In this document: one piece after another, positions 12,601 through 62,430 of the stretch | Layout of the letters: each line of letters opens with the position of its first letter | How positions within the stretch are numbered: position 1 is the first letter of the stretch | Assembly (NCBI GenBank): GCA_025618425.1 | Contig: CM046838.1 | Coordinates: 13,416,010 to 13,480,009, forward strand | Length of the DNA: 64,000 bases | Direction: 5' to 3' | From: Heliocidaris tuberculata | Lineage: Eukaryota > Echinodermata > Echinoidea > Camarodonta > Echinometridae | Translations under genes and position numbers: made by a program | The notes under the pieces: model-generated | The model's input: only the letters and a program-made list of their open reading frames with translations | Databases searched by the model: none | What the model was told of the DNA's origin: nothing

Positions 12601-15600
12601 ACCCACATGTTTTGTTGAGCATAGTCTCTCTAAGATTTGAAGTAAACAAGCAGTAAACTACTTTCTTTTTCATTTGGGAACACAGAATGGGCTTAACGCA
12701 TTAGATTATGCCATGCATCGAGAAAGAGGATTCAATTTGGCAATTGAAATTAACTTTCGTTTCTTAATTCTAAATTTAAAAAAAAAAATCATTATCATCC
12801 CTTGATATACAGTGTACATGTGTGTATCTGGGCATATTCCCTGTATTCACTTTTTCAAAAATGTCACATGCATGGAGTTACCTTTATTTAAAATCTGCTA
12901 AAAGATGAGGAAGATCAAGTTACAGACTTAACCTATAGCAGTTCATAGTTTTGATTAATCAGCCTTCCCTCCTCAAATTGGCTACAGTTATTCTTTTTTC
13001 CAACTCCTACATAGTTAAAAAAAAAAAAAAAATGTCATTAAATGAACCATTGTGAATGAAAGATTGCAAAATTGAACATAAATTTGCCGATTTGCAGATG
13101 AAAATAGTGATTATACATTTTACAAGTGCTGCTTTGCCAATTTAGAGACTATAATGATTAGTTACAATCAGTTGGCAGATTTAAATCATGTTGATTTAAA
13201 GCGACATGATTAAAAAAAAAAAAATCATCAATGATTTAAATCACTTCTATTATAACATGTACAAATAATTGACAAAAGGTTTGTTGTTGGCAGTTTTAAT
13301 CCTTCGAATCAACTACTTCCATCAGAAATATATAATACATGTAAGTTGTCCCAAACACTTGAAAGTCTAGTTATATAGAGATCTACTTTCACTATATAAT
13401 GAAAGTTCAATTACAGATAACTTACATGTATTAAGCAATCTAAGTAGGTCTGTAAGAATGAATAATGTAATCATAAAACGTGTGAAATCCACAATTTTTT
13501 TAGGAGTTATTGTAGATCAACATTTATCATGGAATGAACATATACTAGCTATATCAAACAAAATATCAAGGAATATTGCTGTCATCAACAAACTGCACCA
13601 CTTCTTGCCAGAACATATTTTCATTTTACTGTACAACTCAATGGTTTTTACCTTATTTAATGTATTTTCTGAGCGCCTCACAGGCAGCACTTTTACTTGC
13701 TCTCCTGGTATCTGTTTAATTAGAGTGTTTAGGAGATCATTACTGTTTATCTTTTGTGACATCTTGTGTATCATAACATACTGACCTTGCAAGACAATTT
13801 TGGTAAGGTGTTATGCTCTAGTTTTGTTGTAGTTATATGATTAATTTTTTGGTACTTGTTAGTTCAGTCTTGCTTGGTTTGCTCTGCCCATGGCTTCCAT
13901 GTATTCTATGTACAACTACACTATTGAGAAGCTTTGGACTTATACCAGAGCACTTTTATTGTGTCTAGCACTGATAATCCTATTTCAATGTTATTCATGG
14001 CCAAGTGAACCCATTCATCCATTGTTCTCAGTGGACACCAATATAATGGGTCTGACAAGATCAGAGCTTCTTGAATTGAACTGTGATTTGAAGCTGCCTC
14101 ATGATGTATGGACACACATCAAGGAATTGGGCATCTACAGGAAGCCTGCTACACGGCGTGGAACAAGAGGTGGTAGGAGGAAGAGCAAGAAGAGTGATGG
14201 ACTTTCTACACCTACTGGCAGTCCTCGAAGCGATTCACATGGACAGACGACCCTGAAAGCATGTCTTTGGAATAGTCAGTCAATCCGCAACAAGAGCGAC
14301 TTACTGTGTGATTCAGTTATCGATAACAACTATGACATCACCTTCATAACGGAGACTTGGCTCAAGGAGGATGACCGGGTCATCCTTGGTGAGATTTGTC
14401 CACCTGGTTTCTCCGCTCTCAGTCTTCCGCGAAAAACTTCACGTAGGGGTGGAGGGATCGCTGCAGTATATGACAGCAGTCTAAAGCTGAAGGACTGTTC
14501 CGATACTCTCCCGGAAGCTAGCTCATTTGAATTTGCTTTATTTAGAAACCCCAACGTGAACTTCCTGGTTATCTACAGACCTCCTTCTGGCTCAGTGCCA
14601 TCTTCTACGTTTTTTGAGGAATTCGAGGAGGTCCTCAGCTGTGCCGATTTGCTGCCGAACAGACTGGTGGTCATGGGGGATTTTAACTTCCATATGGACT
14701 GTCCTAGTAAGCCGGAGGTGAGAAATATGAACTCGTTGCTGACCTCGCTTGGCTACAAGCAGCTTGTTCAAGGGCCTACACATCGTCTTGGACACACCCT
14801 TGACCTCATCATCGTTAAGGACAGTGACACTCTCATTACGACATGCTTCGTAGATCAGATTCTGCACTCTGATCACTCCATGATAAAGTTTGATCTTGAT
14901 CTGAAGAAATCAGCTCCTTCTAGTGACATTCGTGTTCTCCGGAAGTTTAAGTCAATAGATCACGAGCAGTTCTCTCAGGATCTATCCAACAGAATGAACT
15001 CAATTATGGATTGTGACAGTAGTAACATCGATGATCTTGTGCTTCGGTACAACGAAGCTTGTCGTGAAGTTCTTGACGCTCACGCCCCCGCAACTACAAG
15101 GACACTGTCAGTTCGAGTAAAGCCTAGCTGGTACACCGATAAAGTGATGGAAGCTCGACGTGCCCGACGGCGTGCAGAGAGACGCTGGCGCAAGACAAAG
15201 TCAAATACTGATCGCAGACTGTATATTGAAGCTCAGCGGACTGTATGTGATGTGGTTGTCTCTGCCAAGAAAGACTATTATCATGAGAGACTTTCTTCAT
15301 GTAATACCAAGGACATGTATAAGACTGTCAATGAATTGCTTAATGTCAGTAGTAATGTTCTTCCTGTATGTACAAACTCTTCTGATCTTGCTGAAGATTT
15401 TTCAAATTACTTTGTCAGTAAGGTATCTAAAATTAGGGACGATATAGAGAGCACTGTTCCAACAAAACGTAATGTCCCTACTTGATCCTACCAAGCCTGG
15501 AGATGCAGCTTGCGCATACTACCGTATCTCGAAGTGCTTAGAAGACATACAATCATGGCTTGTCAGTAATAAATTGAAGTTGAATTCCGGTAAAACTGAG

Positions 15601-16879
15601 TTCTTCATTGCTGCATCATCCACCGACTTGAATCGGTTCAATGACCTTTCATTTTCTATTGATGATCTAGACATCCCAATGTCTTCAACAATCAAGGATC
15701 TGGGTGTTGTCTTTGATAAGGAAATGAAAATGTCTGACCATGTAACAAACTTGTGTCGTACCCTCAATTGGCAAATTTACAACCTCAATCGCATCAGGGG
15801 GTACTTAAATAAAGACACCTGTCATAATGTTGTTAGAGCACTTGTGCTATCCAGGCTTGACTATGGTGGATGTTTGCTTGGGGTCATCAGTAAACAGGAC
15901 CTGGGCAGACTTCAACGTCTTCAGAATAAGTGTGCTCGTCTAATATGTCAAAAACCAAAATGGTCCCACGTCACTCCATTACTCAATGAACTTCACTGGC
16001 TTCCCGTTTCTAAGAGAATACAATACCGTATACTGGTTCAGACTTACAAATCACTGTCAACCACACTTCCTCAATACATCTCCTCACTCTTTCAGCAACA
16101 GAGAACATCATATTCTCTTCGTTCTACCTCTGCTCCTTCCTATGTCATTCCAAAATCCCGAAAACAGGCTGGCTTCAAGTCCTTTCAGTCACTTGCTCCA
16201 CAACTTTGGAACAGACTCCCCGCATCTCTCCGTAATAGCACATCACTTGACATCTTCAAGAAACATCTAAAAACTTACTTATACAATTCTTAATTTACTT
16301 GAATAGACTTTAGGTGACAGCGCCTTGTATCCTTTGGAAAAGGCGCTATATAAATCCAATTATTATTATTATTATTATTATTGCAATGTTGCCTGGGCCA
16401 ACACATATCCTTCCAGGCTCCTTCGATTGTTGAAATCGCAAAAAAAAAAATTGTAAGAATATGTTCAATGTCTGGCTAGCCTATATTGCTCCTTCACAAC
16501 CACTTTTTTAAAAACTTAAATTCCTCACTATCTAGCAATTGAATCAATACTGTATTGAATTAATGGGTTTTTAAACATAAAACACAACAAATTGCCATCT
16601 TGCCACAGTGGTTAAATGTAAAACAGTAATGTATGATAACATTAGAAATCCTTAAAATTATTGTATTGAAGAATGTAAAAACACAGGATCTTCTTTTTCT
16701 TTTAAATACAAAGGACTTTTTATTTGGAACTCTCTTCCTCATTATATCAGAAGTGTTTCATTTTTAAATTCTTTTAAATCAAAACTTAAGGAATTCTAAA
16801 TCACTTTAGTCTGCTACATACATGTAATTGTCCCCGCCGAACGAAGTTCGGGAGGGGACTATGAAACGGGCTCCGTTCG

Positions 16880-16968
<89 letters not shown>

Positions 16969-19900
16969 GTCCGTCCGTCCGTCCGTCCGTCTGTCCGTGT
17001 GTGCTCAAATGTTAGAAAATGCTACTTCTCCGTCATTTCTTGGCCGATTTTGATTCTGATTGTTTTATCTGATAGGGCTGGGTGGGGGCTTCCAAACTGC
17101 TACACAGAATTTTGAAATTCAATAATTATGCAAATTTATGCAAATTTATTCAAAAGTGACGAAAAATGCTACTTCTCCTCTATTTCACATCGGATTTTGA
17201 TTCCGATTGTTTTATCTGATAGGGCTGGGTGGGGGCTTCCAAACTTCTACACAGAATTTTGAAATTCCTTAATTATGCAAATTTATGCAAATTTATTCAA
17301 AATTGACGAAAAATGCTACTTCTCCTCTATTTCACATCGGATTTTGATTCCGATTGTTTTATCTGATAGGGCTGGGTGGGGGCTTCCAAACATCTACACA
17401 GAATTTTGAAATTCCTTAATTATGCAAATTTATGCAAATTTATTCAAAATTGACGAAAAATGCTACTTCTCCTCTATTTCACATCGGATTTTGATTCCGA
17501 TTGTTTTATCTGATAGGGCTCGGTGGGGGCTTCCAAACTTCTACACAGAATTTTGAAATTCCTTAATTATACAAATTTATGCAAATTTATTCAAAATTGA
17601 CGAAAAATGCTACTTCTCCTCTATTTCACATCGGATTTTGATTCCGATTGTTTTATCTGATAGGGCTGGGTGGGGGCTTCCAAACTTCTACACAGAATTT
17701 TGAAATTCCTTAATTATGCAAATTTATGCAAATTTATTCAAAATTGACGAAAAATGCTACTTCTCTATTTCACATCGGATTTTGATTCTGATTGTTTTAT
17801 CTGATAGGGCTGGGTGGGGGCTTCCAAACTTCTACACAGAATTTTGAAATTCATTATTCATGCAAATTTATGCAAATTTATTCAAAATTGACGAAAAATG
17901 CTACTTCTCCTCTATTTCACATCGGATTTTGATTCCGATTGTTTTATCTGATAGGGCTGGGTGGGGGCTTCCAAACTTCTACACAGAATTTTGAAATTCA
18001 TTATTCATGCAAATTTATGCAAATTTATTCAAAATGGCTGAAGGTTCATAATGTTTTCATGTTTTATATTTCAGTTGTATACATGCATTGTTGGTATTCT
18101 CTTCTTTTGCATGCAGTAACATTATTATTTTATTCACTAAAGTTTTTCACTGAAGTTTTAAGGTTCAGGCTAGTTAATTTCCACAGATCTGCACTTCCGG
18201 CGGGGACATTTATTACGCATTGCGTAATTTACTCATTCACTTGTTAATTTATCCAACCCCTTTTATCATTATGTTTTTATAATTTTTATTAGTACAAACT
18301 TAGGTATTTTACTAGTGACTGCCTCGACAGAACCTTTATTTGGTTCTTTTGCAGTTGCCATTTCATGTCCATTATTTTATGTGCTGTAAATATCAATAGT
18401 GCGCTTATTATTCTTGTCTTTTATATTCTACTTTTCTTTCCATTCTCTTTTTTGTTGGTTGGTTCAATGCTTTAATATATTCTATATGTTTGATTCATTT
18501 TTTTAATGTACTTTTTAAATGGACTTGAAAAAATTGAATTGAAAAAAAAAGAAAGAATCAAAGATAAGTATGTGATCAGCAGTGACTCAATTTTGGTTTA
18601 AGTATGTACATGTATGTAAAGTTTTTCATTTGAAATTTGAATTTCTTGTTGGCTATCAGTGAAACATGTTTCTTTTGTATTTCTTTCTTATTACATTTAT
18701 TACAAAATGTAACAGGTTTTTTTTTAGAGAACCTTTTGTAAAAATCACTATAACATAATGTAGTATAGTCATACTTTTAACTGTTGTAAAGCTGTCTTTT
18801 ATATTCCTCACCAACACTGATAGTTCATTTTATGTTCAGTGCTTCGAATAATAACAGAAGTTTTGCATCCCTCGCAATGGAAGAGCTGTAATAACAATCT
18901 GTAAAACTGAAAATAAACTAAACATTACCATTTAAATGTTACAAATAGATATTTTACTACGATAGTTACATGTACATTGCCCAAAAAGATGGCTTTTTCA
19001 GCTAAAAAAGATGACTGTTCTGTCTTTTTCAATGTAACTAGGTGACAAAAAAACACTTTTCCATTGATATTAAAAAAATCAAATGGCAAATGGACCACCT
19101 TTTAAGGTGGTCCATTTTGAAAGAATACGGCCCCAGAGCCATCCTTTGTACAATTAATGCATTAATGCATTAATTGGATAAAAATTGTACACTGGCATGT
19201 GCTTCTGCATGATGATGTTATCGGCAGCATGCATGTACGGAGGATTGGGGGGGGGGGGGGAGACGTCTTTTTTGGCAATGTAACCAAGGGACGAAAATAG
19301 AATAGCAAATGCGTGTTTGATTAAGTGCACACAAAAAAGTGGGGGAATTTTCTCTACTTAATGGGATTCCGAAATGGGGGCATTTTCTCTACTTAATGGG
19401 TATTCCCTAGGGAAGTTTGTATGTTTTATGTATGTATGTATGTTGGGAAATCAATTCATTGAGATTAATTATTTCTCAGTAGATTTTGATTTGTCGGTTA
19501 CTTCATATTTTTGATTGGGCTTAATTACAAAATAAACTGTGAAGAACAATGTTAAGAGTAAAATTTATGATAAGATTAAGATCAATGTTATTATTAGAGT
19601 AAGATTTCTTTGTAATTGAATATTATTTTTCGATGAAATTTTCAAAAAAATAAAAAATTAAAACAATCTGATTTAAATTTTAAAAATCTGATTTTAATCA
19701 ATCAAATCGGATTTTTTTTTAATTAAAAAAAAAAAAAAAAATCGTCAGCCCACTTAAAATTCAATTGCTCTTATTCAAGAACAACACAATGTACTGCATT
19801 AAAAATGGACTCACCATTTTCAGTGAATTTTTCTCTCTTTCTGCTAATGTAAAATGTGTAATTCTGAGCATTTTGGATCAAAAGATACTGCAACAGTGTC

Positions 19901-29800: not shown

Positions 29801-32800
29801 AATCACCTGAAAAAATAATTTGTGTACAGCTAGAAAGTATAAAATCAACCTCAAAGAACTTTGTCTGGTATTCTATAGGTCAACAGTTAATGAGTATGAA
29901 GGAAATAGAGGATAACATGAAAATGCTCGCGCGGAACCGAACTCCGAGTTTGGTTCCGCGCGAGCCTTTATCTTGGCGACCGCGTACGGGTGCGTCAAGT
30001 AGTCTACTCACGAGTTGCTTTTAGACTTATAGAGATATATCTCTTTATAGAATTAATGATTGAAGCCCATATTTTGAATAAAGTATAATGACATGAAACC
30101 TCTAACATACAGAGCAAAATTATATTTGGTGATTGGTACCCTTTAATAGGAATCCATTGAACTCCTATTTTTAAGAGAGACAGTACTCTGATGGCAGAAT
30201 ATTCCCCCTGTATTAATTTCCAGATGTTTTGGGTGTTACATTTAGTCACAAATCCTCATGCATGATATAAAAATGAGAAATAGTTCTAAGAGTGTTCTTG
30301 ACTTTGTATGTTTGTTTGTTTTTGTTTGTTTGCTTTTTATTTTCTTTGGTAGATTGGGTATGATAATAAAGTACACGATGGTAGAATGCCCGTATCACTC
30401 AATTTTCAACATAATTTCTTCACCAACTGCTCCAACAAGTATGGTAGTGGTAAGTCTTGTCTTCTTCTTCATCAGTGACTCAGACTTTGTTGATATTTAT
30501 CTCACAATCTGATTCAGTTTTGCCAACACCTGGAATTTAATATATAAAACAAATTTCTGTGGCTCACTTTTAGTTTTTTTCAACATTTTTCTGAACATTA
30601 GAAACGATAAATCTTATATCTGCCTGCATGTACAGCAATGAAATTCAAAATGTTTCTGGGCCAACCAAAATGTTTCGTTAAAAAGAGACTATAATATGGA
30701 ATATTAAAACTGGGAATCTAGGGTATTAAACATTTTTTAGTAGGAAAGGAAATAATAGTCCTATTTTGTGTAATTATATTTATCTTACATGTAAAGAAAA
30801 AAAAAATCATTTGCAATTTTAGACAAAAGGATATTTGTTCAGTGTTAGAATTGCCCCTTATGTATTTTTGAGGGTATTCTTTTTGATTGTGCATATGTGT
30901 AAGAACACTTGAGAAGAATTGCTAATTTCATGTACCTACAAATTTAGTTTATTAGATGACTTTTTCACTCATTGTCTTTGTCTATATTTGTCGTTCATTT
31001 CAAGTTGCAAACACTTATGAATTTCATCTTTTCCCCAAATATTACATAGTAACTTTCAGTTAAGTGTTGTCCTTATACATGTACATGATTCTTGGCTGTA
31101 ACATCATAGCTACATGTAGCTACACCACAATTTTTCCTGGATATAGTTTTCACACACTGTCCACTGTAAGTTGTTGAAATACCTTTTGATCTACTATTTC
31201 CTTATTGAATCATATTTTTTATAAAGAGAAACAACTAATGAAACATTCCCTTTTGTACATTCCTTTTTTCCTATTGATATTTAGATGAGTTAAAGAAAGC
31301 AGGTGCAAGGCTGACATTTTCATTGGACATCCTTGTCATCATACTGTGTGTGATGTCAATGATATTGTGCGTGAGGTCCATAATAAAGGCACAACAGCTG
31401 AAATTTGTGAGTATCAGAAACCTGTGGGTTATTATCTATCATTATTGTCTCTATGCTAGTCATTCTTGAAAGAGATGCTCTATTCTATATTCCCTGTGGA
31501 ACCAATTGTGCAATATTGGCAATGATTGTTTTCTGCATTACTAGTGAAGCGATCTACTTGTAAGAATTATTTTTTAGTGTCTGCCATTGTCGTCGTCATC
31601 ATCTTTTGTCATCATCATCGTCATAATCATCATCATCACCATCATTATAATCACCATCATCATCTTCATAATCATCATCAACAAAAAATACTGCATCATG
31701 ATCATCATCATCATCCGAATATCATTATCACCATCATTTTCATCATTAAACATCATCGTCATCACTACCACACTTGGCACCATCATCGACATAATCAGCA
31801 TCATTGTCTCTGTGCCGTGAAAGAGTGCGTTATACATCATTCCTAATTTACAAAGGCATGATTGTAGAGCAATGATTTTTATGCCTCTGCCCACCGAAGG
31901 TGGTGCTGGAGGCATTATGTTTTCGGGTTGTCCGTCCGTCCGTCCCACTTTCTCGTTTTAGCAATAACTCAAGAACCACATGAGGTATGAACTTCAAACT
32001 TGGTGCTAGTATGTATCACCATAGGAAGACGATCTGATTCCATTTTGGGGTACGTAGGTCAAAGGTCAAGGTCACAGAGGCCCATTTCTGAAATTTCAGG
32101 TGTTAGCCTCATTCTCGCGATAACTCAAGAACCATATGAGGTATGAACTTTAAACCTGGTGCTAGTATGTATCACCATAGGAGGATGATCTGGGGCCCGT
32201 TGCACAAAACTTGCGTTTAATCGCAGCTCCTAAAAATCAAAAGCAAGTCCTTAATGCGCACTTCTGATTGGCTAAAAATAAAGGTGCGTTTGATTTTCCT
32301 GAGTTGCGTTTAAACGCAAGTTTTGTGCAACGGGCCCCTGATCAGATTTTGAGGTATGTAGGTTAAAGGTCAAAGGTCACAGATCAATTTCTGAAATTGC
32401 AGGTGTTAGCCTTGTTAACGAGATTTCTCGAGAACCATTTGAGGTATGAACTTCAAACTTGGTACTAGTATGTATCACCATAGACGATTTAATTAGATTT
32501 TGGGATATGTAGGTCAAAGGTCATAGAGGTCATTATACAGGTGTGTGTGAAATTAATGTTTTTTTTTAACCTATGTTATCACCATATCTCAACTATTTTG
32601 TATACATGACAAGGAGGAGATAAAGTGATCAGACTTTTGGGTTATAAGATGTAAGGTCAAATGTCAAAAGGTCAATTAACATGTAATTAGAGGCTTTTTA
32701 TTCTGGTTATCAAAATATTTCAAGAACAGTGTGAGCCATCAACAGAATTTAGGCGGAGGCATATAAGAGGCGGAGGCATATAAGAGACGCAGTCACATTC

Positions 32801-35800
32801 ATCTTGTTTTTTTTTTCATTTCTAATTAGTGGAATTATCTTTTACTATCCCTTTATATTCTTTATTAGAAAACAATGCAGTTTTTCAAGGTACATTACAA
32901 CTACAAACTGAGCACAACCGATAGAATGGAGTTCTTGAATCTGTGGTATGTGATCATCATTGTCAGTGATATATGCACCATTATTGGGAGTGTTATCAAG
33001 GTCTTGATAGAAGTATCAGTGAGTATAAAAGGTTCTTTTTTATGAATAACATCATCACCTGTAGGGCTGGGAAAAGTAATGCTTGAAGCAATAGACCGGT
33101 TTACTAAGTTATTCAAATTTATGGATGTTTCTTTCCGGAGGACCTAGTGACCAGGTATTCCACCAACCTGTTATTAATAAATGGACTACAATACTAGGAA
33201 TCCAGTTTGCATACATTACTTGTTGCTATGTCGGGCAAGCATCAGGCAAGCTTTCAGGTTGTCAAGAACAACCTTTGTTTAAAAAGCATGCATAAAATTT
33301 GAATATGTTAGTAAACCGGCCTATTTAGGAAGCACATGAAAACTAAACAAGAATGGTGACAAGTTTCTTTGAAAGGAAAAAATCTGAAAAACAAATTGGC
33401 GAATATTTAATTTATTTCTCATTTCTTATCAGAATTTGCTAGGGCTTTAGTTGATCGGTTTCTTTAGTTTTCCTGCTTCTTTTGAAACCGAGTTGGTATC
33501 GGGATGGACTTCCTCTTTCACTTCACAGTTCAATGATTTCAATGTACATGTATATTTGATTGTTGTTTGTAAATCATTACCAGAATTGATGTTCAATTAC
33601 TTATTTCATGCTAATTTGAGTATCAATAAAATCCCTGTGGATGGGGGAAATTTTTTTTAATAAACATTGTCAAAACCATGATCACTATCAAGATGTTAGT
33701 CTCAAATTGGTGAATTGGTCATGGTTATAATTCTTGGAATGTTCTCCCTGTATGAACCTGTCCTTGGTGATCTCTGTTATACAAACAGAAAAATATCAAT
33801 ACTTTAGTAAAATAAAGAGTTAACAAACTGTGATATATGCAATCTCTTGCTTGGCACATTTTTTTTTTAATGGAATATAAAGAGGTAAAACATTACTGTT
33901 TTTCAACCAATTTAAACCTTGGTTCCTGCAGCTCCAACTATTCATAGGATGTTCTGTGGAGTATTACTGTATTCATGCAGCTGGAGCGATTCATATGATA
34001 CATGTATCTCTGTGTTTACTCCGTAGGATAACACACACTATGACCCTTGCAGTCTTTTGCTCGGTATGGGCTGTTTTCTTGTGTGGTTTGGTGTTCTCAG
34101 GTACCTGGGTTTCTTCAACAAGTACAATGTAAGTCATGCCTTCTCAGTCAGAACCATTATTATTTGTAAATTGCATTTCCTGAATCCAGTGCAAGAGATC
34201 TTGATTGTAGAATTTGAAGAGTTTTGTTATTCTTGAAATCAAGGATACATTTACGAGTAACCCTCAAGCATGCTTCAGTGGCTAATGTAATAATGTTTCT
34301 TATCTGTGCTAGTAGTACATGTATCTTTGGTAATAATCTGCCTTTGAAGGGCCCTGTAATGGACTTCTTTTTGAATTTCATTTATCTCCTTGATCCTAAA
34401 TATAATGATGCTAAAGAATGCCTGCCCAATGTACGAAGGTTTCTAATCTGTGCTAGTATTATCTACAATGTATGTTAATACATGTAATCTTCTCTTGACG
34501 AGCCATATGATGAATAAGCAGTTCTTTTTACTGTTTTCCATTATTTCCTAGATCCTGATAGTAACTCTGAAGAATGCCATGCCTAATGTACTAAGGTTCC
34601 TGATCTGTGCTGGTATTATCTATGCTGCTTATGCTTTCTTTGGCTGGATAGTTCTTGGACCATACCATCCCAAGGTACATGTAAACCATTGCCGATACAC
34701 ACTTTTTTTCTAATAGTCCCTCATTTCTGTTTTTTTTCTTTATATCCCTTTTGGTATTCTTATTCTACATTAGTTTGCATATTACATGTATATTGAGCGT
34801 TCCCATGCTCGTTTCAAGCCCTGATTAGTCAGTTGGAGCAATGTGTAATAATGTTTACTCACTGGTTGATGAGACTCGTCAAAAGTTTTTAAAGATAAAA
34901 TTCTGATATGTAGAAATATGACATATTGTGTAGTTTTATGTTTCTTAATACATTACACAGAATACTCAATATTGTAGTTTGTTCAGAGTATTGCAGGGTT
35001 TTGTACGGTGATAGATAATATGCATCATCACATTTACTAGGTTTTACATTGTTATCTATTATTCTGCAACCATCAATATGGGCACTTCCCACAGGATATG
35101 CAGTTAAATTGAGAATACATGCAATAGTTGAAGCGATTCTACTATTAAAAGATTTGGGTGAGTCTAAGGTATTCAGTTCTTTTGTCTCCCTTATATCTTC
35201 AAGTATCACTAAATAATGATTATAATTAACATAGAAATTATCACTTTTCTTCATATTTGCTTTGATCCACCGGTATATTGTTGGGTTATTAACTTAATAC
35301 ACTCATCAGGGCCCTGTTTTTCTAAACTTGTCGTCAGATCACTAACAAGTACCAAACTTCAGTGACACATTTGCTCACAGCCATTCAACTGCAATTAGTT
35401 CAGTAGCTTATATCAGTTCTTGTACTTTAACTTGTGTTTTTAAAGAATAAGTTTTGTTAAAATGGGGCCCAGGGCAGCGTTTCCTCAAACAGGCTTAAGT
35501 ACAAGTTCACCGACATCCCATTGAAACACGTGTATTAAAACTAACGCGTGTTTCAATAGGATGTTGGCAAACTTGAACTTATGATGGTTTAACCCTTTCA
35601 GGACAGGAATTATTTAAGAGTTCAATTGATCACATTTTGTTCTGCAAATTGGCAACAATAATATTTTTCTTTTAGTGCTACGTGGTTCTAGTAAGAATGT
35701 AATGTCTTGAAAATAATATACATGATTAGGAACTTTGTCGAAAAGTTGAAAAAGTTGCCAATTTGGACAAAAAAAAACAATGATTTTGAACCTCTCAATG

Positions 35801-41232: not shown

Positions 41233-42302
41233 ATAGAATTTGGTATTGTCAATGCCGGGAAATCTATACAATATTAAAGCAGATATTACCAGAATGTCCA
41301 TTTTTCTTTCTGTCTTAATGTAATTGAATAAGTTTCATTGTACAAAATGCTGTAACTTGCCTATCCACAAAGCGCCGTTTTTACCATTTGTATGTCAAGA
41401 CAGACAATACTATTTGATGTTGATGTTTTTTTTGGTTTTTTTTTACTGCATTACATTTGTGCATCTTGCTGATCTGCACAAGGAATGCAAACTATTTCAA
41501 GTCTTCCTTGTAAGTGCACCATCACAGGGAATTATTGAATAATTGTTCATAACTTTGTTAAATCTTTAAAAAGTGGATAGAAATACATGTGCATGTTTTT
41601 ACTCAAGATTTACTTAATGATTTTCATGTAGAATCTTCATTGATGATAACATGGAATAAGAAATTTGTGGAATTTAGTGAAGTACATTGCCTCTTTAATC
41701 TCTTTCAGGGCAGTTGCCCATATTTTGTGATTTGGTTCAATAACTTATGATTATGAGAACTAAAAACATACCATGAATAGAAAGAGCAAAGCACTTTTGC
41801 ACACTGTGTGTCCATTTTTGTCCTGTTACCATATGGTGATTGATGACTGGGATATAAAAATGAAATGGACATTAAAATCCATTTGTTAGCAGCATGTTGA
41901 AAAGATTGAAATTACTGTTTTCCAGTCAAAGTGGCAATTTCTTTCACTTTTCCACATAGCTTCTGTTCAAGTTTATTAATTTCAGATACAAATTGTTGCT
42001 ATAAAAGAAAATACCAGCGTTGCCAATTTAAAGAAGAAAAGCTACTTCATTTAGCCCTTGAAAATACTATCCAGAGTGAGTTATTGCAACAGACATGACT
42101 TAAAGATGTACTGCACTACATGTATACAATGATGATATCATAGGCGTACTCAAGGGGGGGGGGGGGTGTTTTGGGTGTTTTAGGTGTTCAAACACCCCCC
42201 TTTAGCAGTGTTTTAGGTGTTTTCAAATTAAACAAAAGCTTGTTTGTAACCCTTTTATTTTTTATTTTTGTTTCACCTTGGTCTAATGATACATGTATAT
42301 CT

Positions 42303-44205
42303 TTTTATGCCTCCGCCCACCGAAGGTGGTGCCGGAGGCATTATGTTTTCGGGTTGTCCGTCCGTCCGTCCGTCCGTCCGTCCGTCCGTCCGTCCCGCTT
42401 ACTTCTTTGATCGATAACTCAAGAACCACATAAGGTATGAACTTCAAACTTGGTGCTAGTATGTATCACCATAGGAAGATGATCTGATTAGATTTTGGGG
42501 TACGTAGGTCAAAGGTCAAGGTCAAGCCAATTTTTCTGAAATTTTAGGTGTTAGGCTCGTTCTAGCATTAACTCAAGAACCATTTGAGGTATGAACTTCA
42601 AACTTAGTGCTAGTATGTATCACTATAGGAAGACGATCTGATTAGATTTTGGGGTACGTAGGTCAAAGGTCAAGGTCACAGAGGCCAATTTTTCTGAAAT
42701 TTCGGGTGTTAGGCTCGTTCTAGCATTAACTCAAGAACCATTTGAGGTATGAACTTCAAACTTAGTGCTAGTATGTATCACCATAGGAAGACGATCTGAT
42801 TAGATTTTGGGGTACGTAGGTCAAAGGTCAAGGTCACAGAGGCCAATTTCTGAAATTTCAGATGTTGGCCTCGTTCTAGCTATAACTCAAGAACCATTTG
42901 AGGTATGAATTCAAACTTAGTGCTAGTATGTATCACCATAGGAAGATGATCTGATTAGATTTTAGAGTAAATAGGTCAAAGGTCAAGGTCACAGAGGCCA
43001 ATTTTTCTGAAATTTCAGGTGTTAGGCTCGTTCTAGCATTAACTCAAGAACCATTTGAGGTAAGAACTTCAAACTTAGTGCTAGTATGTATCACTATAGG
43101 AAGACGATCTGATTAGATTTTGGGGTACGTAGGTCAAAGGTCAAGGTCATAGAGGCCAATTTTTCTGAAATTTCGGGTGTTAGGCTCGTTCTAGCATTAA
43201 CTCAAGAACCATTTGAGGTATGAACTTCAAACTTAGTGCTAGTATGTATCACCATAGGAAGACGATCTGATTAGATTTTGGGGTACGTAGGTCAAAGGTC
43301 AAGGTCACAGAGGCCAATTTCTGAAATTTCAGATGTTGGCCTCGTTCTAGCTATAACTCAAGAACCATTTGAGGTATGAATTCAAACTTAGTGCTAGTAT
43401 GTATCACCATAGGAAGATGATCTGATTAGATTTTAGAGTAAATAGGTCAAAGGTCAAGGTCACAGAGGCCAATTTTTCTGAAATTTCAGGTGTTAGGCTC
43501 GTTCTAGCATTAACTCAAGAACCATTTGAGGTAAGAACTTCAAACTTAGTGCTAGTATGTATCACTATAGGAAGACGATCTGATTAGATTTTGGGGTACG
43601 TAGGTCAAAGGTCAAGGTCATAGAGGCCAATTTTTCTGAAATTTCAGGTGTTAGGCTCGTTCTAGCATTAACTCAAGAACCATTTGAGGTATGAACTTCA
43701 AACTTAGTGCTAGTATGTATCACCATAGGAAGACGATCTGGTTAGATTTTGGGATACGTATGTAAAAGGTCAAAGGTCATAGAGGTCAATTCTGAAATTG
43801 CAGGTTTTAGCCTTAATGTGATATCTCAAGAACCATTTGATCCCTTAACTTCAAACTTGGAACTAGTATGAAACACCATAATGAGACGAACTGATTAGAT
43901 TTTTGTTCACGTAGGTCAAAGGTGACAGGTCATAGAGGTCATTATACAGGTGTATGTGAAATTAATGTTTTTTTAACCTTTGTTATCAACATATCTCAAC
44001 TATTTTGTATTCATGACTAGGAGGAGATAAAGTGATCAGACTTTGGGGTTATAAGGTGTAAGGTCAAATGTCAAAGAGGTCAATTAACATGTAATTAGAG
44101 GTTTTTTATTCTGGTTATCACAAGATTTCAAGAACAGTTTGAGCCATCAACTGAATTTAGGCGGAGGCATATAGGAGACGTAGTCGCATTCATCTTGTTT
44201 TGTTT
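42303..44205 (+). mobile_element. Hairpin-capped satellite element, family B, long copy
   Basis: 5' hairpin 42308-42340 (TGCCTCCGCCCACC, loop GAA, GGTGGTGCCGGAGGCA), then (GTCC)n at about 42356-42395, about ten monomers of about 157 bp, and a unique tail of about 350 bp shared with the 31877 copy. GGCGGAGGCAT (44160-44170) inverts ATGCCTCCGCC (42307-42317). Homology continues about 30 bp past this to CATTCATCTTG, so the inverted repeat is subterminal at the 3' end, as in Helentron-like elements. No ORF of substance. Confidence 0.8.
42416..43830. repeat. 157-bp monomers in a 471-bp higher-order repeat
   Basis: The word AACTCAAGAACCA starts at 42416, 42570, 42728, 42884, 43041, 43199, 43355, 43512 and 43670. 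Units three apart are exactly 471 bp apart (42728/43199/43670, 42884/43355, 43041/43512) and share private variants such as TTTTAGAGTAAATAGG, so trimers were copied as blocks. Nearly every monomer holds AGGTCAAAGGTCA (for example 42506-42518, 42660-42672). Confidence 0.93.
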
Positions 44206-51700: not shown

Positions 51701-54700
51701 ATCACACTTCCAAGTCGTGATGTCATATGTCTTCCCTGTCAGCCAGACAAACAAAAATAAATCATTTGATATTGATCGGATGGATGAAATTCAAGGATGT
51801 TGATCAGACTCGTCTATTATTTTTCGTATTGAAATAATTTCATTGGTCATGAAATGGATATACATTTCCTTTCCAGAGAACATTTTCAGTCAACTGAGGT
51901 AATATATGTAATCTGTTCAAAAGTTTATTTTTTGTTTGTTTTTTTGCAGTAAAAATTACACTCAAAGGTTTATTATTGCATGATCTTTAGCGAAGTCTAA
52001 AATGCCCCCCCCCCCTATTTTACATACTTTCAAGAACATTTTCCACAAAATGCTGACCCCTTTTGAGGAAAAGGGGTACATAATAGGTTTTAAATGTGAC
52101 CCTATTTTTACTTATCGAGCACAAATTAACCTGTTGTCTACTGGAGCCGGGTGCTCCCTGTATTAAGCCTATGAGAGTGAGAGAATGCAGTTGTCAACGG
52201 GTTAACAAAAAAGTACACCGTATTCGGAAAAACCCAGATATACGCATTCACATGTTTGCGAACATCATGAAAATATATGACTCGTTTTCGTGGAATATGG
52301 CGATCAAGGATCTCATATATAACAAAAAATCTAAACGTAGATTAGGCCTGGTATACACACTTTTGTATTCGATTTGAAATACATAATTGATACAGGATTT
52401 CGTCTTCTCACTATTTAACAGTTATGTAGCAGATACATGAATTTGGTAACACGTCATGATAAAGTGATTTAAATGTTCGATTACTATGAGAGTAACGAAT
52501 ACCTAACCAGTTTGTTTCAAAATGTTACCATGATGAGCTAAGTAACATTGATTATTTAGAACAGGTACAATTTGTCAGATTAAGGACGTTCCACAGTTAA
52601 AGTCAAATCCATGTCATTTTCACCAAACTTTTCATACAGTTACTTTTGTCCATGAGAAGCCCAAATACGCATAGAAAATTATAGGTCCATGTGCTTACTT
52701 TTTTTCTATGGGACACTGAACAGTGCCATGATCGGGTGTCAGGTAGAATGACGTCATCGCAGGTTTTTGGCCATTGATAGGCCTCAGAATTCCCAATGTC
52801 ATATACAAATCCCCATTATTCTGTCAAAATCCATGTCATATTCGTCAAACTTTCCAGATTTGTAGAGAAAAGTATACTGAAGGAGGAGAAAGTTTTAAAA
52901 ATGGGGGTCAATGCACTCGTTTTTATGCTAACATCGCCCTCAGATGGCAGAAAAGGTCAACAACTCGCAAAACTCGTAAGAACTGGCTGAGAACCTGTCT
53001 AGGAATGGGATGGGTTCGAAAAAAACTATACTGTACATTCAAAATCCATGCCAGATTCGTAATTTTTCCATATTTGTAGAGAATTATATACTGCAGAAGG
53101 AGAAAGTTTTAAAAATGGGGGTCCATGCACTCGTTTTTGTGCTAGCAGGGCCCTCAGGTGGCGGAAAAAGTCAAAAACTCGCAAAACTCGCAAAAACTGC
53201 GCATGGCTGGCTGGGAACCTGTCTGGGAATGGGATAGGTGCAAAAAAACTCTACTGTACATTCAAAATCCATGCCAGATTCGTAATTTTTTTCCATATTT
53301 GTAGAGAATTATATACTGCAGAAGGAGAAAGTTTAAAAAATGGGGGTCCATGCACTCGTTTTTGTGCTAGCAGGGCCCTCAGGTGGCGGAAAAAGTCAAA
53401 AACTCGCAAAACTCGCAAAAACTGCGCATGGCTGGCTGGGAACCTGTCTGGGAATGGGATAGGTGCAAAAAAACTCTACTGTACATTCAAAATCCATGCC
53501 AGATTCGTAAATTTTTCCATATTTGTAGAGAATTATATACTGCAGAAGGAGAAAGTTTTAAAAATGGGGGTCCATGCACTCGTTTTTGTGCTATCAGCGC
53601 CCTCATGTGGCGGGAAAAGTCAAAAACTCGCTAAACTCGCAAAAACTGCGCATGGTTGGCTGGGAACCTGTCTATGAATGGGATAGGTGCAAAAAACTCT
53701 ACTGTACATTCAAAATCCATGCCAGATTCGTAAATTTTTCCAGATTTGTAGAGAATTATATACTGCAAAAGGAGAAAGTTTAGAAAATGGGGGTCCATGC
53801 ACTCGTTTTTGTGCTAGCAGGGCCCTCATGTGGCGGAAAAAGTCAAAAACTCGCAAAACTCGCAAAAACTGCGCATGGTTGGCTGGGAACCTGTCTATGA
53901 ATGGGATAGGTGCAAAAAAACTCTACTGTACATTCAAAATCCATGCCAGATTCGTAATTTTTTCCAGATTTGTAGAGAATTATATACTGCAGAAGGAGAA
54001 AGTTTAAAAAATGGGGGTCCATGCACTCGTTTTTGTGCTATCAGCGCCCTCAGGTGGCGGAAAAAGTCAAAAACTCGCAAAACTCGCAAAAACTGCGCAT
54101 GGCTGGCTGGGAACCTGTCTAGGAATGGGATGGGTGCAAAATAACTCTCCTGTACATTCAAAATCCATGTCATTTTCACTAAAGTTTCCAGATTTGTAGA
54201 GAAAATTATACCGAAGGAGGAGAGAGTTTGAAAAAAGGGGGTCAAAGTACTGGTTTTTGTGCTAGCAGCGCCCCCCCCCCCCCGCATTTTTATAATAAAT
54301 CATTTTGCAAGGTTCCCGAAAATCCTCATATTTTGGTAGCGAGTCGCCTGAATATCCTCATATTCGGGCAGCGAGGTGCCGGTATACCAAAAAGTGTTTA
54401 AAATTTTGTACACAAAGTTTAGAAACAAAATAACCCTATTTCAGGTGTAAGGAGGGATATTGAAAAACAATGGATGATTACAGTGCTTCAATTATTCCAT
54501 TTTTTAAAATGAAATATTCTAAACCTCGCACTTTGAAAATATATCGGAATATGGAAGAAAAGGCGTTGCGGGGATGTGCTTGCATGGTCGGGGGGGGGGG
54601 GTGGGGTAGGGCTGTATAAGCAGGTAGCAAGCGTGCGAAGTGGACTAACTTTGCCTATAGAAAGTTCATGAGGGGGTATCGAATGTTATCTTTCAGCTCA

Positions 54701-56641: not shown

Positions 56642-57628
56642 CGGTTCTTTATTCTGGTGCCGGAGGCGTGGGAAATATTGTATCAAAATCCTCTGTAAGA
56701 ATAATGATTGGCCCTGTCATTTTTTTTACAGGCGTATCGTTGATCCATGTCTTTTTTATTTGGTAATATTGTGATAAACATCCATCCTAATTCTGGAATG
56801 CAAGAAATCACCTTCGACATCGAATATCCAGTATGAACTGTGCATTATTTCTTTTTTTGTTGCATATTTGGACTGGCAACCACAACATGAAATTGAACCC
56901 TGATAAAATGTAATGTCTTGTAGTGACTGTTGGTTCAAACATATTCCCTTTTCTAACATGTTCGAAATGACAACAAGTGGACTGCAAAATATTGCTTGGG
57001 GTATGAAGAAAATCGCTTGTACAATAACTTTGTATTTTTAATTACTAACCTGCATGTGATCGATGTTTAATAACTTGGAATGATATATTTGTCTGCTGTC
57101 AATCATGACCAGTCCTTTTAATCATGATTTTATGTACTGATGTAATGACAGCGATTGCTACTATACTGTACATGTCAGTCATAGAGCGATGTAATTAAGA
57201 TGATATGTCTTATGCTTCTCACGATGTGAGCTTTGTCTGAATGATTTGCTTTGTTGGTCTGCAAATACACATTCATGGCTTAATTTATTTTAGCGATGTT
57301 AAGTGTTGCAACGGATATGATGGGAAACAGGATGCTTGTCATTTCGAGGGCGATTTATCCTTTGAATATTTAATTTTTCCTCCACATGACAGTTTTCCCC
57401 GATGAGCAGTGAATTATGACACAGAATATCTGATATGATCTTTTTGACTGGTTCACATAAACTTGAGAAAATCCAAACTACGAAATTGTAAAATCTAACC
57501 TGATAAAGTACTTTTCCAGTTCCAAATATTACTGAAAACTTTCCCCCTCAACTATAATATAGACCTTCTTTAGTTTTTGCGACAAGTATTAAGATGCTAT
57601 AGGGATCAAACAAGCAGGATAAACTACC

Positions 57629-58549
57629 ATGGATCCACCAACGCCTTCAGACATGTCAGATGCCCCGACAGAGTATATACAAGCTGCTGTAGTGTACATT
57701 GGATATGCACTAATGTTCGTCTCTATTTGCTTCAATACTTTCCTATTGATTGTAATACAGATTAATGATGTGTTCAGCGAAGTGGAATCCATTCTCTATC
57801 AGATCCTTGCAGTGGAGGACATGTTGAATTTTGTGTACGGTGTTGTCTTCTTGTCATTTAGAGTGAAAGATAGTAGTGATACAGGATTTCGCAATGTTGA
57901 ATTGTACATGTATAGTTTTCTCTACCAAACACTCGGCACTATTCTAATGATTACTATGAACCGATATTTGACAATCGTTAGGCCACTGCAGTCTTTGAGA
58001 TGGGTAACTCGGAAGAAAATCATCATTGCCCAAGGCGTATTAACCTTCTCCTGCTTCTTATCAGTGAGTTTTTATGCTGTGTTGGAGAGTTTCATTCATA
58101 ACATTGGACGCGCTCTTAATATCATCTTTATCGTGCCTATCGTGGTAGGATGTATCGTGCAAGTGGTGACCGGTTCTCACATTCTATACTTATCTGTCAA
58201 GCAATCGAGACGCATTAACGACGTCCGGAACATCATGATCAGGAACCGCTCTCAGCTAGACTTGAACGTTCCTCAAGAACGACGCCCTCTCAACAGTTTC
58301 AAAGGCATAAGAACAGTCTTGGTGATTACCATGTCATACTGGATCGCATGGACACCATGGATTCTTTTTATGCTGGCAGTATCAGAATATATCGACTTAC
58401 CCCAGTTTTACTTTAGCTTTTCAATTATCATGTTAATGTGTAATTCCTGTTGGAACGTTTTACTATACTACGTCACTAACAAAAATTTTCGTGTTGCTGC
58501 AAAGAAGACTTTATGTAGCATCAAGACAAGACTCTGTAAAACAATTTGA
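57629..58549 (+). CDS. Rhodopsin-like (class A) GPCR, single exon, copy 1
   Basis: 306 aa. The start has a strong context (ACCATGGAT). Seven hydrophobic segments: TM1 about 18-42 (FN at 35-36 where GN is usual), TM2 about 52-75 with LAVED (Asp64), TM3 about 90-112 ending NRY (111-113) in place of DRY, TM4 about 130-152, TM5 about 163-190, TM6 about 228-252 with SYWIAWTPW (Trp241, Pro243), TM7 about 262-282 with NVLLY (276-280) for NPxxY, then TNKNFR and a short Cys-containing tail. No cysteine sits at the top of TM3 or in the second extracellular loop, so the usual class A disulfide is missing. Ligand unknown. Intronless lineage-specific receptor expansions are known in sea urchins; assignment to one is inference. 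Confidence 0.9.
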   Translation: MDPPTPSDMSDAPTEYIQAAVVYIGYALMFVSICFNTFLLIVIQINDVFSEVESILYQILAVEDMLNFVYGVVFLSFRVKDSSDTGFRNVELYMYSFLYQTLGTILMITMNRYLTIVRPLQSLRWVTRKKIIIAQGVLTFSCFLSVSFYAVLESFIHNIGRALNIIFIVPIVVGCIVQVVTGSHILYLSVKQSRRINDVRNIMIRNRSQLDLNVPQERRPLNSFKGIRTVLVITMSYWIAWTPWILFMLAVSEYIDLPQFYFSFSIIMLMCNSCWNVLLYYVTNKNFRVAAKKTLCSIKTRLCKTI

Positions 58550-59788: not shown

Positions 59789-62430
59789 AAGCGATACGAT
59801 AAGCAGCAGTTCTGGCCTGCCCGGAGCTATTTCAAAATTATGAAAAAATAGCTTCAGTAAAGCCATTGATTTGATAAAATTAATATAACCCCGAAGAATA
59901 GCGTTGCCATCATTAACTCCTCCACATGGAATTTTACCTTGCTGCCGTAGCATGAAGAGCGAACTTCTCACCGCGAACAGAGCGCGAAGCACCGCTCGAC
60001 GCTCGCTGATTGGCTAGATGTTTGTCTCTTTTTTAAGTGTCGTAGGGGACAATACTCAGTCCTGCTATGCTTCCTCTCTGCGGCCATTAACAGGCGTATC
60101 GTTGATCCATGTCTTGTTCTTTAGTAGTATTGTGATAAATATCTATCTTAATTCTGGAATGCAAGAAATCACTTTAGATATGAAGTATCCAAAACACTCT
60201 CAAAGATCGCGTAAAAAGGAAAGATGCATGTTTGTCGGGGAAACTTTACACAATATTGAGTAAAATTTACCCTGCATTTGGAAAATTTTACCCAAAGTTT
60301 TTGTAGAGTGTAAAGAGTGCGTTATATATCTGCATAGGTGGACGGGCATCCACAACACAACATGAAATTGAACTTTGATGTTCTGTTTTGACTGTTGATT
60401 AAAACCATATTCCCTTATCACAAATGTTGGATGTGAGTCAAACGAACTGCGAAATATTGCTTCGGAGTGTGTATTTTTTTTTCAAATCATATCGATTTAT
60501 TGATATTAATATCTACAATTTTGACTTATCGTTAGTTTATAAGTAAATAAAAAACAATAATGATAATACAATTAATAATAATAATAATGATAACTATAAT
60601 AACAATAATGATACTACACATAGCAGGTTACAGATGAATAGTCGACAAGAAATGTTAAATCATCAATGAAAATAGTTTTGATCTCTTGCAAATTTTACAA
60701 ATAAATTACTTTTTATGAGCCTGTTTTATCTATTCTATCACCTTACATATCACTTAATTTTGGACATAAATGTCAAAATGGGTCAGCTAATTATAGTTTT
60801 GACCCCTCGCAATATTTGTCCAAAAAAGGAGTTTAAACGACTTGTAACGGACCTTGGCCTTTTTTCATTACAAATCTGTGATTGATGCTCAATTATATGG
60901 AATGATTATGTTTGTTGTCAATCGTGACCTTTTAGTCATGATTTTATATAATGATGTAATGACACCGACTGCAGCTATTCTATACATGCCAGTCACAGGG
61001 CGATGTAATTAAGATGATATGTAACTATCTATGTGAGCCCGCATTTGAGCTTTGTATAAATGACGTTTTGTTGATCTGCAAAATTAGTACACATGACTTC
61101 AATGAAAAGTGTTGCTATGGATATGCAGGTAAACAGGATGCTTGTCATTTCGATGACGATTTATTCTTTGGATATCAATTTTTCCTCCACATGACAGTTT
61201 TCCCCGTTGAGTAGTGACTTATGTCCGTGGCTCACAGAATGTCTGATAGTTTTTTTTGTTTTTGTTTTTACTGCAGGGTGCAAGTTGAGAATGGTTGACA
61301 TAAACATTAGGAAATCAAAACTGCGAAATTGTAAAATCTAATCTGATTAAGTACTTTTCAAGTTCCAAATATTCATAAAAAATTGTCCCGTCAACTATAC
61401 TATAGATCGACTACAGTTTTTGCGAAAAGTAACAAGATGTTGTGGGATGTTCACACCAAAAGAGCAATATAAACTGCCATGGATCCACCAACGCCTTCAG
61501 ATGCCCCGACAGTTCATGTACAAGCAGCTGTAGTGTACATTGGCTATGCACTAATGTTCGTCTCTATTTGCTTCAATACTTTCCTATTGATTGTAATACA
61601 GATTAATGATGTGTTCAGCGAAGTGGAATCCATTCTTTATCAGATTCTTGCAGTGGAGGACATGTTGAATTTTGTGTACGGTGTTGCCTATTTTTCATTT
61701 AGAACGAACGTAGATGGTAGTGACACACTATTTTACAATGTTGAATTGTACATGAATAGTTTTCTCTACCAAACACTCGGCACTATTCTAATGATTACTA
61801 TGAACCGATATTTGACAATCGTTAGGCCATTGCAGTCTTTGAGATGGGTAACTCGAAAGAAAATCATCATTGCCCAAGGCGTATTGACATTCTCCTGCTT
61901 CTCATCTGTGAGTTTGTACGTTCTGTTGAAGAGTTACATCGGATGGGCTTTTATCACCTTTACTATGCCTATCGTGGTAGGATGTATCCTGCAAGTGGTG
62001 ACCGGTTCCCACATGCTATACTTATCTGTCAAGCAGTCGAGACGCGTTAACGACGTCCGGAACATCGTGGTCAGGAACCACTTTCAGCCAGACTTGAACG
62101 TTCCTCAAGAGGGACGCCCTCTCAACAGTTTCAAAGGCATAAGAACAGTCTTGGTGATTACCATGTCATACTGGATCGCATGGACACCGTGGATTCTTAT
62201 TATTCTGACACAATCACAGTATATCGTCTTCCCTCCGCTTTGTATAAGCTTTTCAATTATCATGTTAATGTGTAACTCTTGTTGGAACGTTTTACTATAC
62301 TACGTCACTAACAAAAATTTTCGCGTAGCTGCAAAGAAGACTTTATGTAGCATCAAAACGAGACTCTGTAAAACAATTTGGCAGGTTTAGATTTATATTG
62401 CTTGATGAAGAGTGTTCCTTTGTCGTTATG
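59789..62430. repeat. Tandem segmental duplication, unit 2
   Basis: Partner of 55858-58600. It lacks the 145-bp MITE but has about 390 bp of extra AT-rich sequence (60475-60880) inside the shared 5' flank. Homology resumes at TGTCAATCGTGACC and continues through the receptor gene. Confidence 0.85.
61479..62390 (+). CDS. Rhodopsin-like (class A) GPCR, single exon, copy 2
   Basis: 303 aa, very similar to copy 1 over most of its length, with the same ACCATGGAT start, LAVED, NRY, SYWIAWTPW and NVLLYYVTNKNFR motifs. Differences cluster in the N-terminus, the first extracellular loop (RTNVDGSDTLFYN versus RVKDSSDTGFRN), TM4 and the second loop (LKSYIGWAFITFTM versus LESFIHNIGRALNI), and the TM6-TM7 loop (TQSQYIVFPPL versus AVSEYIDLPQF). 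These are the surfaces expected to contact ligand. It also lacks the TM3/second-loop cysteine pair. Its C-terminus extends by three codons (WQV). Confidence 0.9.
   Translation: MDPPTPSDAPTVHVQAAVVYIGYALMFVSICFNTFLLIVIQINDVFSEVESILYQILAVEDMLNFVYGVAYFSFRTNVDGSDTLFYNVELYMNSFLYQTLGTILMITMNRYLTIVRPLQSLRWVTRKKIIIAQGVLTFSCFSSVSLYVLLKSYIGWAFITFTMPIVVGCILQVVTGSHMLYLSVKQSRRVNDVRNIVVRNHFQPDLNVPQEGRPLNSFKGIRTVLVITMSYWIAWTPWILIILTQSQYIVFPPLCISFSIIMLMCNSCWNVLLYYVTNKNFRVAAKKTLCSIKTRLCKTIWQV

What the first reader, a model, noticed from the sequence alone, without database searches (positions are those of the whole stretch)
42303..44205. Two unrelated-sequence families share one mobile architecture: GAA-loop hairpin, GTCC microsatellite, ~150-bp satellite, inverted tail
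Family A (16830-18207) and family B (31877-32816, 42303-44205) have no evident sequence similarity, yet have the same order of parts: a 5' hairpin of about 13-14 bp stem closed by GAA; 15-20 bases later a (GTCC)n tract; a tandem array of 147- or 157-bp units; and a 3' tail containing the exact inverse of the first 9-11 bases of the hairpin (GTCCCCGCC/GGCGGGGAC; ATGCCTCCGCC/GGCGGAGGCAT). The 3' end could therefore pair with the hairpin arm. This suggests a mechanism that recognises structure more than sequence, possibly Helentron-like rolling-circle elements that spread satellites. The family-B tail continues about 30 bp past the inverted repeat in both copies. Related satellite-bearing elements are known in molluscs and other invertebrates; whether this hairpin arrangement is described is unknown to me.
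Basis: partly seen in the sequence, partly recalled or inferred. Interest (0 to 1): 0.78.

Follow-up and report, generated by a model that had tools for sequence, protein, structure and literature searches.

The report
Satellite-carrying non-autonomous Helentron elements (HINEs)
These are two families of a known kind of rolling-circle jumping gene (stripped-down Helentrons) that carry short satellite arrays around an animal genome; for one family the likely full-length, protein-coding parent was found on another chromosome.

Summary
Both families have a 5' hairpin, a (GTCC)n tract, a 147- or 158-bp tandem array, and a 3' tail holding the inverse of the hairpin arm. In genome copies the ends are sharp: TT|hairpin at 5', CATTCACTTG|TT (A) or CATTCATCTTG|TT (B) at 3', with no duplication of the target beyond T's. 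A's last 22 bp plus TT occur 2545 times exactly; a 23-mer of B's tail occurs 443 times. This is the published DINE-1/HINE layout: subTIR, neighbouring inverted repeat, GTCY microsatellite, central repeats, 3' subTIR, TT target. For family A a parent was found: a 9,518-bp Helentron on C12 with an uninterrupted 2240-codon frame (Rep, PIF1 helicase, C-terminal endonuclease), the same hairpin, GTCC tract, five satellite units and 3' end. The ten A copies read share one junction, an 8,465-bp internal deletion of that element; they were picked with a query spanning it. No parent was found for family B (the given coordinates), so B is HINE-like by structure and target. The families' end modules resemble each other weakly; recognition of structure rather than sequence is not supported. 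New members of a known kind. The extra: the coding Helentron itself carries the satellite.

The parts
42302..44197 (+). Family B element, copy 1 (HINE-like); 5' T run 42302-42306, body 42307-44197
   Evidence: ends agree with other genome copies
42307..42341 (+). B copy 1: 5' subTIR (ATGCCTCCGCC) plus complementary inverted repeat forming a hairpin
   Evidence: fold; 24 copies
42356..42395 (+). B copy 1: (GTCC)10 microsatellite
42415..43938 (+). B copy 1: 158-bp tandem array, also reported with a 471-bp (three-unit) period; a further degraded unit is matched nearer the 3' subTIR
44160..44171 (+). B copy 1: 3' subTIR, exact inverse of 42306-42317
44172..44197 (+). B copy 1: 3' terminus ending CATTCATCTTG, followed by TT; no strong palindrome
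31876..32806 (+). Family B element, copy 2: hairpin 31881-31915, (GTCC)4 31930-31945, short array interrupted by a palindromic insert 32186-32344, 17-bp duplication in the tail 32751-32786
16830..18243 (+). Family A element: matches the C12 Helentron minus its interior
16830..16859 (+). A: 5' subTIR (GTCCCCGCC) and inverted repeat forming the hairpin
16879..16998 (+). A: (GT)n followed by GTCC microsatellite
17016..18035 (+). A: seven 147-bp units; five such units are in the C12 Helentron
18178..18179 (+). A: junction of the inferred 8,465-bp internal deletion (GTTAAT|TTCCACAG)
   Evidence: same in the 10 A loci read, which include the window's own copy and two loci (L066, L069) with one flank, and were picked by a query spanning the junction
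18199..18243 (+). A: 3' subTIR 18199-18207, palindrome TTACGCA-T-TGCGTAA 18213-18227, terminus CATTCACTTG

Best explanation
Both families are HINEs or HINE-like: non-autonomous relatives of Helentrons, the endonuclease-bearing rolling-circle transposons. Family A most likely arose from an autonomous Helentron of about 9.5 kb by one internal deletion that removed the Rep-helicase-endonuclease gene but kept both ends, the GTCC tract and the satellite array, and was then copied thousands of times by protein supplied in trans. Family B has the same kind of ends and target, but its parent was not found. Inferred mechanism, from published rolling-circle models and not shown here: the endonuclease opens a T-rich target; Rep joins the 5' end after TT; the helicase peels off one strand; the 3' subTIR, able to pair with the 5' hairpin arm, and in A the 3' palindrome, mark where copying stops. 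The array travels as passenger and changes its unit number inside the element.
For: Sharp ends in many copies. TT before the 5' end in 29 of 29 and after the 3' end in 25 of 29, the rest TC 3 and AT 1 (5 of 34 rows left out: L001 and L063 repeat the window, L010 is a duplicate of L009, L013 and L065 have a shifted 5' end). Related repeats without the insertion for B copies L016, L020, L025. Exact 67 bp of A's 3' end downstream of a Rep ORF, in its orientation, with no array beside it (observed 0 mismatches in 29, shuffled queries 9-12; without L062 the other 33 Rep stretches give only chance matches). The same locus has A's hairpin, GTCC tract, five units and post-array tail at about 97% identity. 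Pfam Helitron_like_N and PIF1 and Exo_endo_phos fall in one frame by their coordinates; searches give that frame as 2240 aa without stops. One junction in the A loci read. Layout as in PMC2374699, PMC4067079, PMC7492417 (passages and one section).
Against: No parent for B: its ends match the Rep-bearing stretches held no better than shuffled ends, and a 1.1-kb stretch beyond the C19 Rep relative has none. B has no strong 3' palindrome (-1.9 kcal/mol). B's empty sites are paralogous repeats, about 75-84% alike, with gaps of up to about six bases near the junction in some (L020, L026, L027), so they are not base-exact; A has no independent empty site. Not every copy is whole: of 28 B loci, L004, L006, L007 lacked a recognised 3' end and L012 a 5' end; of 10 A loci, L064, L066, L069 lacked a recognised 5' hairpin. 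The A loci were picked by a query that spans the deletion junction, so its constancy is partly built in. About 3.5 kb inside the C12 frame was not read by me (6385801-6387100, 6389601-6391800). Movement itself is not shown.
Confidence: 0.92

Rival explanations
1. Tandem-repeat-bearing MITEs moved by a cut-and-paste (DDE) transposase, the inverted repeats being subterminal TIRs.
For: Short inverted repeats and high copy number.
Against: The 3' repeat lies 26 bp (B) or 36 bp (A) inside the end, no target duplication is visible beyond T's, the target is T/T, and A's ends flank a Rep-helicase-endonuclease gene.
Confidence: 0.04
2. Two unrelated kinds of element that came to one hairpin layout because the enzyme reads structure, not sequence.
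For: Arrays and bodies of A and B share only the GTCC tract at low E-values; pairing of the arms is kept in both; the similarity of the ends is weak, and beyond the subTIR alone 202 of 5000 shuffles reach it.
Against: End-anchored similarity of both modules: CATTCA(T)CTTG|TT and 9 of 11 matching subTIR bases. No compensatory changes in 25 B hairpins, which is weak evidence.
Confidence: 0.06
3. Family A was not deleted from the Helentron; the C12 locus is a HINE-A copy that gained the Rep gene between its tail and its 3' end.
For: One coding copy is seen against thousands of A 3' ends; the break lies at one clean junction, whose constancy in A copies is partly a matter of how they were picked.
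Against: Rep, helicase and endonuclease in one frame is the described Helentron gene, and HINEs are described as simple deletion derivatives (PMC4067079, passages); a gained gene would have to land in the right orientation between functional ends.
Confidence: 0.06

Closest known systems
DINE-1 (Drosophila; PMC2374699)
   Different: subTIR sequence (ATACCCGTTACTC in D. melanogaster); here arrays of 147- and 158-bp units; B lacks a clear 3' stem-loop
Helentron / HINE (PMC4067079)
   Same: Rep-helicase with C-terminal endonuclease, non-autonomous deletion derivatives sharing both ends, runs of T at the borders, no TSD (passages)
   Different: here the coding element itself carries the satellite array in front of the gene; I did not see that in the passages read
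Cg_HINE of Pacific oyster (PMC7492417)
   Same: 5' subTIR of 11-12 bp, inverted repeat of 7-12 bp, microsatellites including GTCC and GTCY, satellite array, 3' subTIR, T-rich target, no TSD; groups with related ends but different arrays
   Different: a coding partner was found here for one family; the paper reports stem-loop potential in all 3' palindromes examined, weak or absent in B
Pearl elements of bivalves and Tsp elements of sea urchin
   Same: array-bearing elements that PMC7492417 (Pearl) and PMC4067079 (sea urchin, by citation) count as HINE or DINE-1-like
   Different: original papers not read; sequences not compared

Membership tests
HINE / DINE-1-like (families A and B) | 11-15-bp subterminal inverted repeats | tested here: met
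   A 15 positions 93% complementary (9 exact), B copy 1 12 bp exact; seen in genome copies, often with one mismatch
HINE / DINE-1-like (families A and B) | inverted repeat beside the 5' subTIR (hairpin) | tested here: met
   three of ten A loci lack a recognised hairpin
HINE / DINE-1-like (families A and B) | GTCY/GTCC microsatellite in the 5' module | tested here: met
HINE (family A) | palindrome near the 3' end | tested here: met
   7-bp stem TTACGCA/TGCGTAA; kept in most A loci
HINE (family B) | palindrome near the 3' end | tested here: inconclusive
   only -1.9 kcal/mol; by eye at best a broken 5-bp stem AGA(C/T)G/CATCT
HINE (families A and B) | insertion in T-rich sequence between TT | tested here: met
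   29 of 29 at 5', 25 of 29 at 3'
HINE (family B) | no target-site duplication (empty sites) | tested here: met
   L016, L020, L025 against related repeats; paralogous and not base-exact
HINE (family A) | no target-site duplication (empty sites) | tested here: inconclusive
   flanks show no duplication beyond T, but no independent empty site was found
HINE (family A) | shares both ends with an autonomous Helentron | tested here: met
   C12:6384936-6394453
HINE (family B) | shares both ends with an autonomous Helentron | tested here: inconclusive
   none found in the stretches held, but not every Rep locus could be read to its ends; hence B is called HINE-like
Helentron (C12 element) | Rep (HUH) plus PIF1-type helicase | tested here: met
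   Pfam (PIF1 matched in part, the stretch ends there); one search shows HFH, AYLTSYMCK and GGAGVGKS (motif names recalled)
Helentron (C12 element) | AP-type endonuclease at the C-terminus of the same protein | tested here: met
   PF14529 2.9e-8, PF03372 1.1e-7; same frame by coordinates; 2240-aa frame
Helentron (C12 element) | actual transposition by rolling circle | not testable with these tools
   needs experiment or several individuals

The most novel reading that the evidence does not exclude
The satellite array is an original part of the autonomous Helentron, lying between its 5' hairpin/GTCC tract and its gene, not a later catch of the stripped copy. The (GTCC)n tract may be the seam at which Helentron ends of common descent exchange arrays, so that one set of ends spreads many unrelated satellites.
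Probability: 0.2. Interest if true: 0.5.

Novelty: new member of a known kind. Interest (0 to 1): 0.33.

Why it matters
It ties a satellite-bearing non-autonomous family to a specific coding parent that carries the same array. That lets one ask directly whether satellites spread by rolling-circle transposons start in the parent or are gained afterwards. Otherwise it is a further example of HINEs, a kind described from insects, molluscs and sea urchin.

Tried and rejected
Giant Helitron-like ORFs as parents: no ends were found, homology between loci goes on into the stretch 21-27 kb along the C16 locus, and A/B ends match the 33 Rep stretches other than L062 only at chance level. Polar growth of arrays as a rule: in most of 25 B rows the units grade from near-consensus at the 5' side to about 65-68% at the 3' side, but A arrays do not (7 copies). 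Covariation inside the B hairpin: nothing to see. Third families in the stretches held: none recognised. The finding's own test, GAA-loop hairpins followed by (GTCC)n genome-wide, was asked repeatedly and never answered; nor was the count of A 3' ends whatever follows them, so a genome-wide TT fraction is missing.

The host was not identified. The C19, C14 and C2 relatives of the C12 Rep are candidates for B's parent; only 1.1 kb beyond one of them was read, without a B end.

Full report
What is there. The three elements named in the finding are present and have the order of parts described. Each starts with a hairpin whose left arm reappears inverted near the 3' end. The window lies in an 897-Mb assembly of 69 contigs that is not named.

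Borders. A DNA search with the B 5' end gave 107 matches (pieces, several to a copy; 40 of 2682 candidates scored); one with the A body gave 64 (40 of 1364 scored), the best being 96-98% identical. I read borders in 28 B loci (L001-L028), 10 A loci (L063-L072) and the window. B copies begin TT|ATGCCTCCGCC and end CATTCATCTTG; A copies begin TT|GTCCCCGCC and end CATTCACTTG. L004, L006 and L007 lacked a recognised 3' end and L012 a 5' end; L064, L066 and L069 lacked a recognised 5' hairpin. Of 34 rows with both ends, 5 were set aside (two repeat the window, one is a segmental duplicate, two have a shifted 5' end). In the other 29, TT precedes the 5' end in 29; TT follows the 3' end in 25, TC in 3, AT in 1. 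A 23-mer of B's 3' subTIR and tail occurs exactly 443 times, and A's last 22 bp followed by TT 2545 times, with 0 for the reversed control in both searches.

Empty sites. Flanks of each copy, joined, were compared with the stretches held. Three B copies (L016, L020, L025) lie in repeats that also exist without the insertion; the junction falls in T-rich sequence and no duplication beyond T's is visible. The repeats differ from the flanks by substitutions and small gaps near the junction (four bases in one L020 alignment), and L026 and L027 matched with 5-6 extra bases there, so single bases cannot be settled. No independent empty site was found for A.

The parent of family A. The Pfam family Helitron_like_N has 31 matches in the genome. 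The stretch downstream of one of them, C12:6388931-6389518 on the minus strand, holds the last 67 bp of A without a mismatch and without an array beside it; in the other 33 Rep stretches held (148,516 bases) the A and B ends match only as well as shuffled ends do. Upstream of the gene lie A's hairpin, (GTCC)n, five 147-bp units and the post-array tail, at about 97% identity. The element runs from C12:6394453 to 6384936, 9,518 bp, flanked by T's at 5' and TT at 3'. Its frame of 2240 codons without a stop holds Helitron_like_N and the start of PIF1, and its C-terminal part matches Exo_endo_phos families. This is the Helentron layout. Of 61 homologous proteins elsewhere, those named by species come from Pecten maximus, Argopecten irradians, Glandiceps talaboti and Mya arenaria; some list Helitron_like_N with PIF1, and eight list PIF1 with an endonuclease domain; none lists all three. 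Removing 8,465 bp between GTTAAT and TTCCACAG turns the C12 element into family A. That junction is the same in the 10 A loci read; these include the window's own copy and two loci with one flank, and they are the best hits of a query that spans the junction, so the count is biased toward it. No second copy of this protein at more than 47% identity was found in the genome (33 matches).

Family B. Its ends were not found in the Rep-bearing stretches beyond what shuffled ends give, nor in 1.1 kb beyond the C19 relative. B is therefore HINE-like by architecture and target. Its 3' palindrome is weak or missing.

Are A and B related? Their arrays and bodies are not. Their end modules align weakly: 62 of 5000 composition-preserving shuffles reach the 5' score (45 of 5000 for the 5' module without the microsatellite), 17 of 5000 the 3' score, and 202 of 5000 for the part beyond the subTIR. 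This is suggestive of common descent, not proof.

Arrays. In B, unit types are ordered. The last full unit has its nearest relative in another copy in 24 of 24, and in 20 of 24 at the same place counted from the 3' end. L009 and L010 share one insertion site but are 1554 and 1243 bp long, so unit number changes after insertion. A shows no such gradient (7 copies).

Known or new. DINE-1 was described with subTIRs, a neighbouring inverted repeat, a GTCY microsatellite, central repeats and TT insertion (PMC2374699, passages). Helentrons, and HINEs as deletion derivatives, are in PMC4067079 (passages). Oyster HINEs with GTCC tracts and satellite arrays, including groups with related ends but different arrays, are in PMC7492417 (passages and section 7). 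A 2025 review (PMC12628747, passages) says that the central regions of Helitrons/Helentrons often contain arrays of satellite-like repeats. I did not see a coding Helentron that carries the array in these passages; that is a statement about what I read, not about the literature as a whole.

Mechanism. Shown: ends, T/T target, a coding element with A's ends and array. Strongly suggested: deletion origin of A. Inferred: nicking by Rep at the 5' T/T border, strand displacement, termination at the 3' subTIR region, endonuclease choice of T-rich target. These last steps follow from published models and the domain content, not from data here.

Noticed in passing
L033-L048 and L049-L054 (C1, C2, C4, C6, C12, C16, C19): Nineteen Helitron_like_N matches lie in long uninterrupted frames (15 of 3010-4370 aa, 4 of 1499-2175 aa). 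The one frame scanned joins Herpes_teg_N, OTU, DUF6570, Helitron_like_N and PIF1 domains. Homology between loci reaches into the stretch 21-27 kb along the C16 locus; ends not found.
   Followed up: partly
window 32186-32344: Palindromic MITE-like insert with 60-bp arms, 88% complementary, inside B copy 2. B copy L026 sits in a repeat that looks similar by eye.
   Followed up: partly
window 52824-54273: A 224-bp tandem array, 6.5 copies; no (GTCC)2 in the 500 bases on either side; hairpins there not tested.
   Followed up: partly
family B arrays in L002-L028 and the window: In most of 25 rows units grade from near-consensus at the 5' side to about 65-68% at the 3' side, with ordered 3' unit types shared between copies.
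   Followed up: yes
L064 near 1462: An A copy whose sequence upstream of the GTCC tract is replaced by other DNA, so the join lies at the microsatellite.
   Followed up: no
L014 near 1627 (minus strand): A B copy ends beside a 5'-truncated A copy.
   Followed up: no
window 13863-15482 and 15448-16290: ORFs that read like LINE endonuclease and reverse transcriptase remnants (my reading, no search made).
   Followed up: no
window 57623-58546 and 61473-62387: Two similar ORFs that look like seven-helix receptors (my reading, no search made).
   Followed up: no
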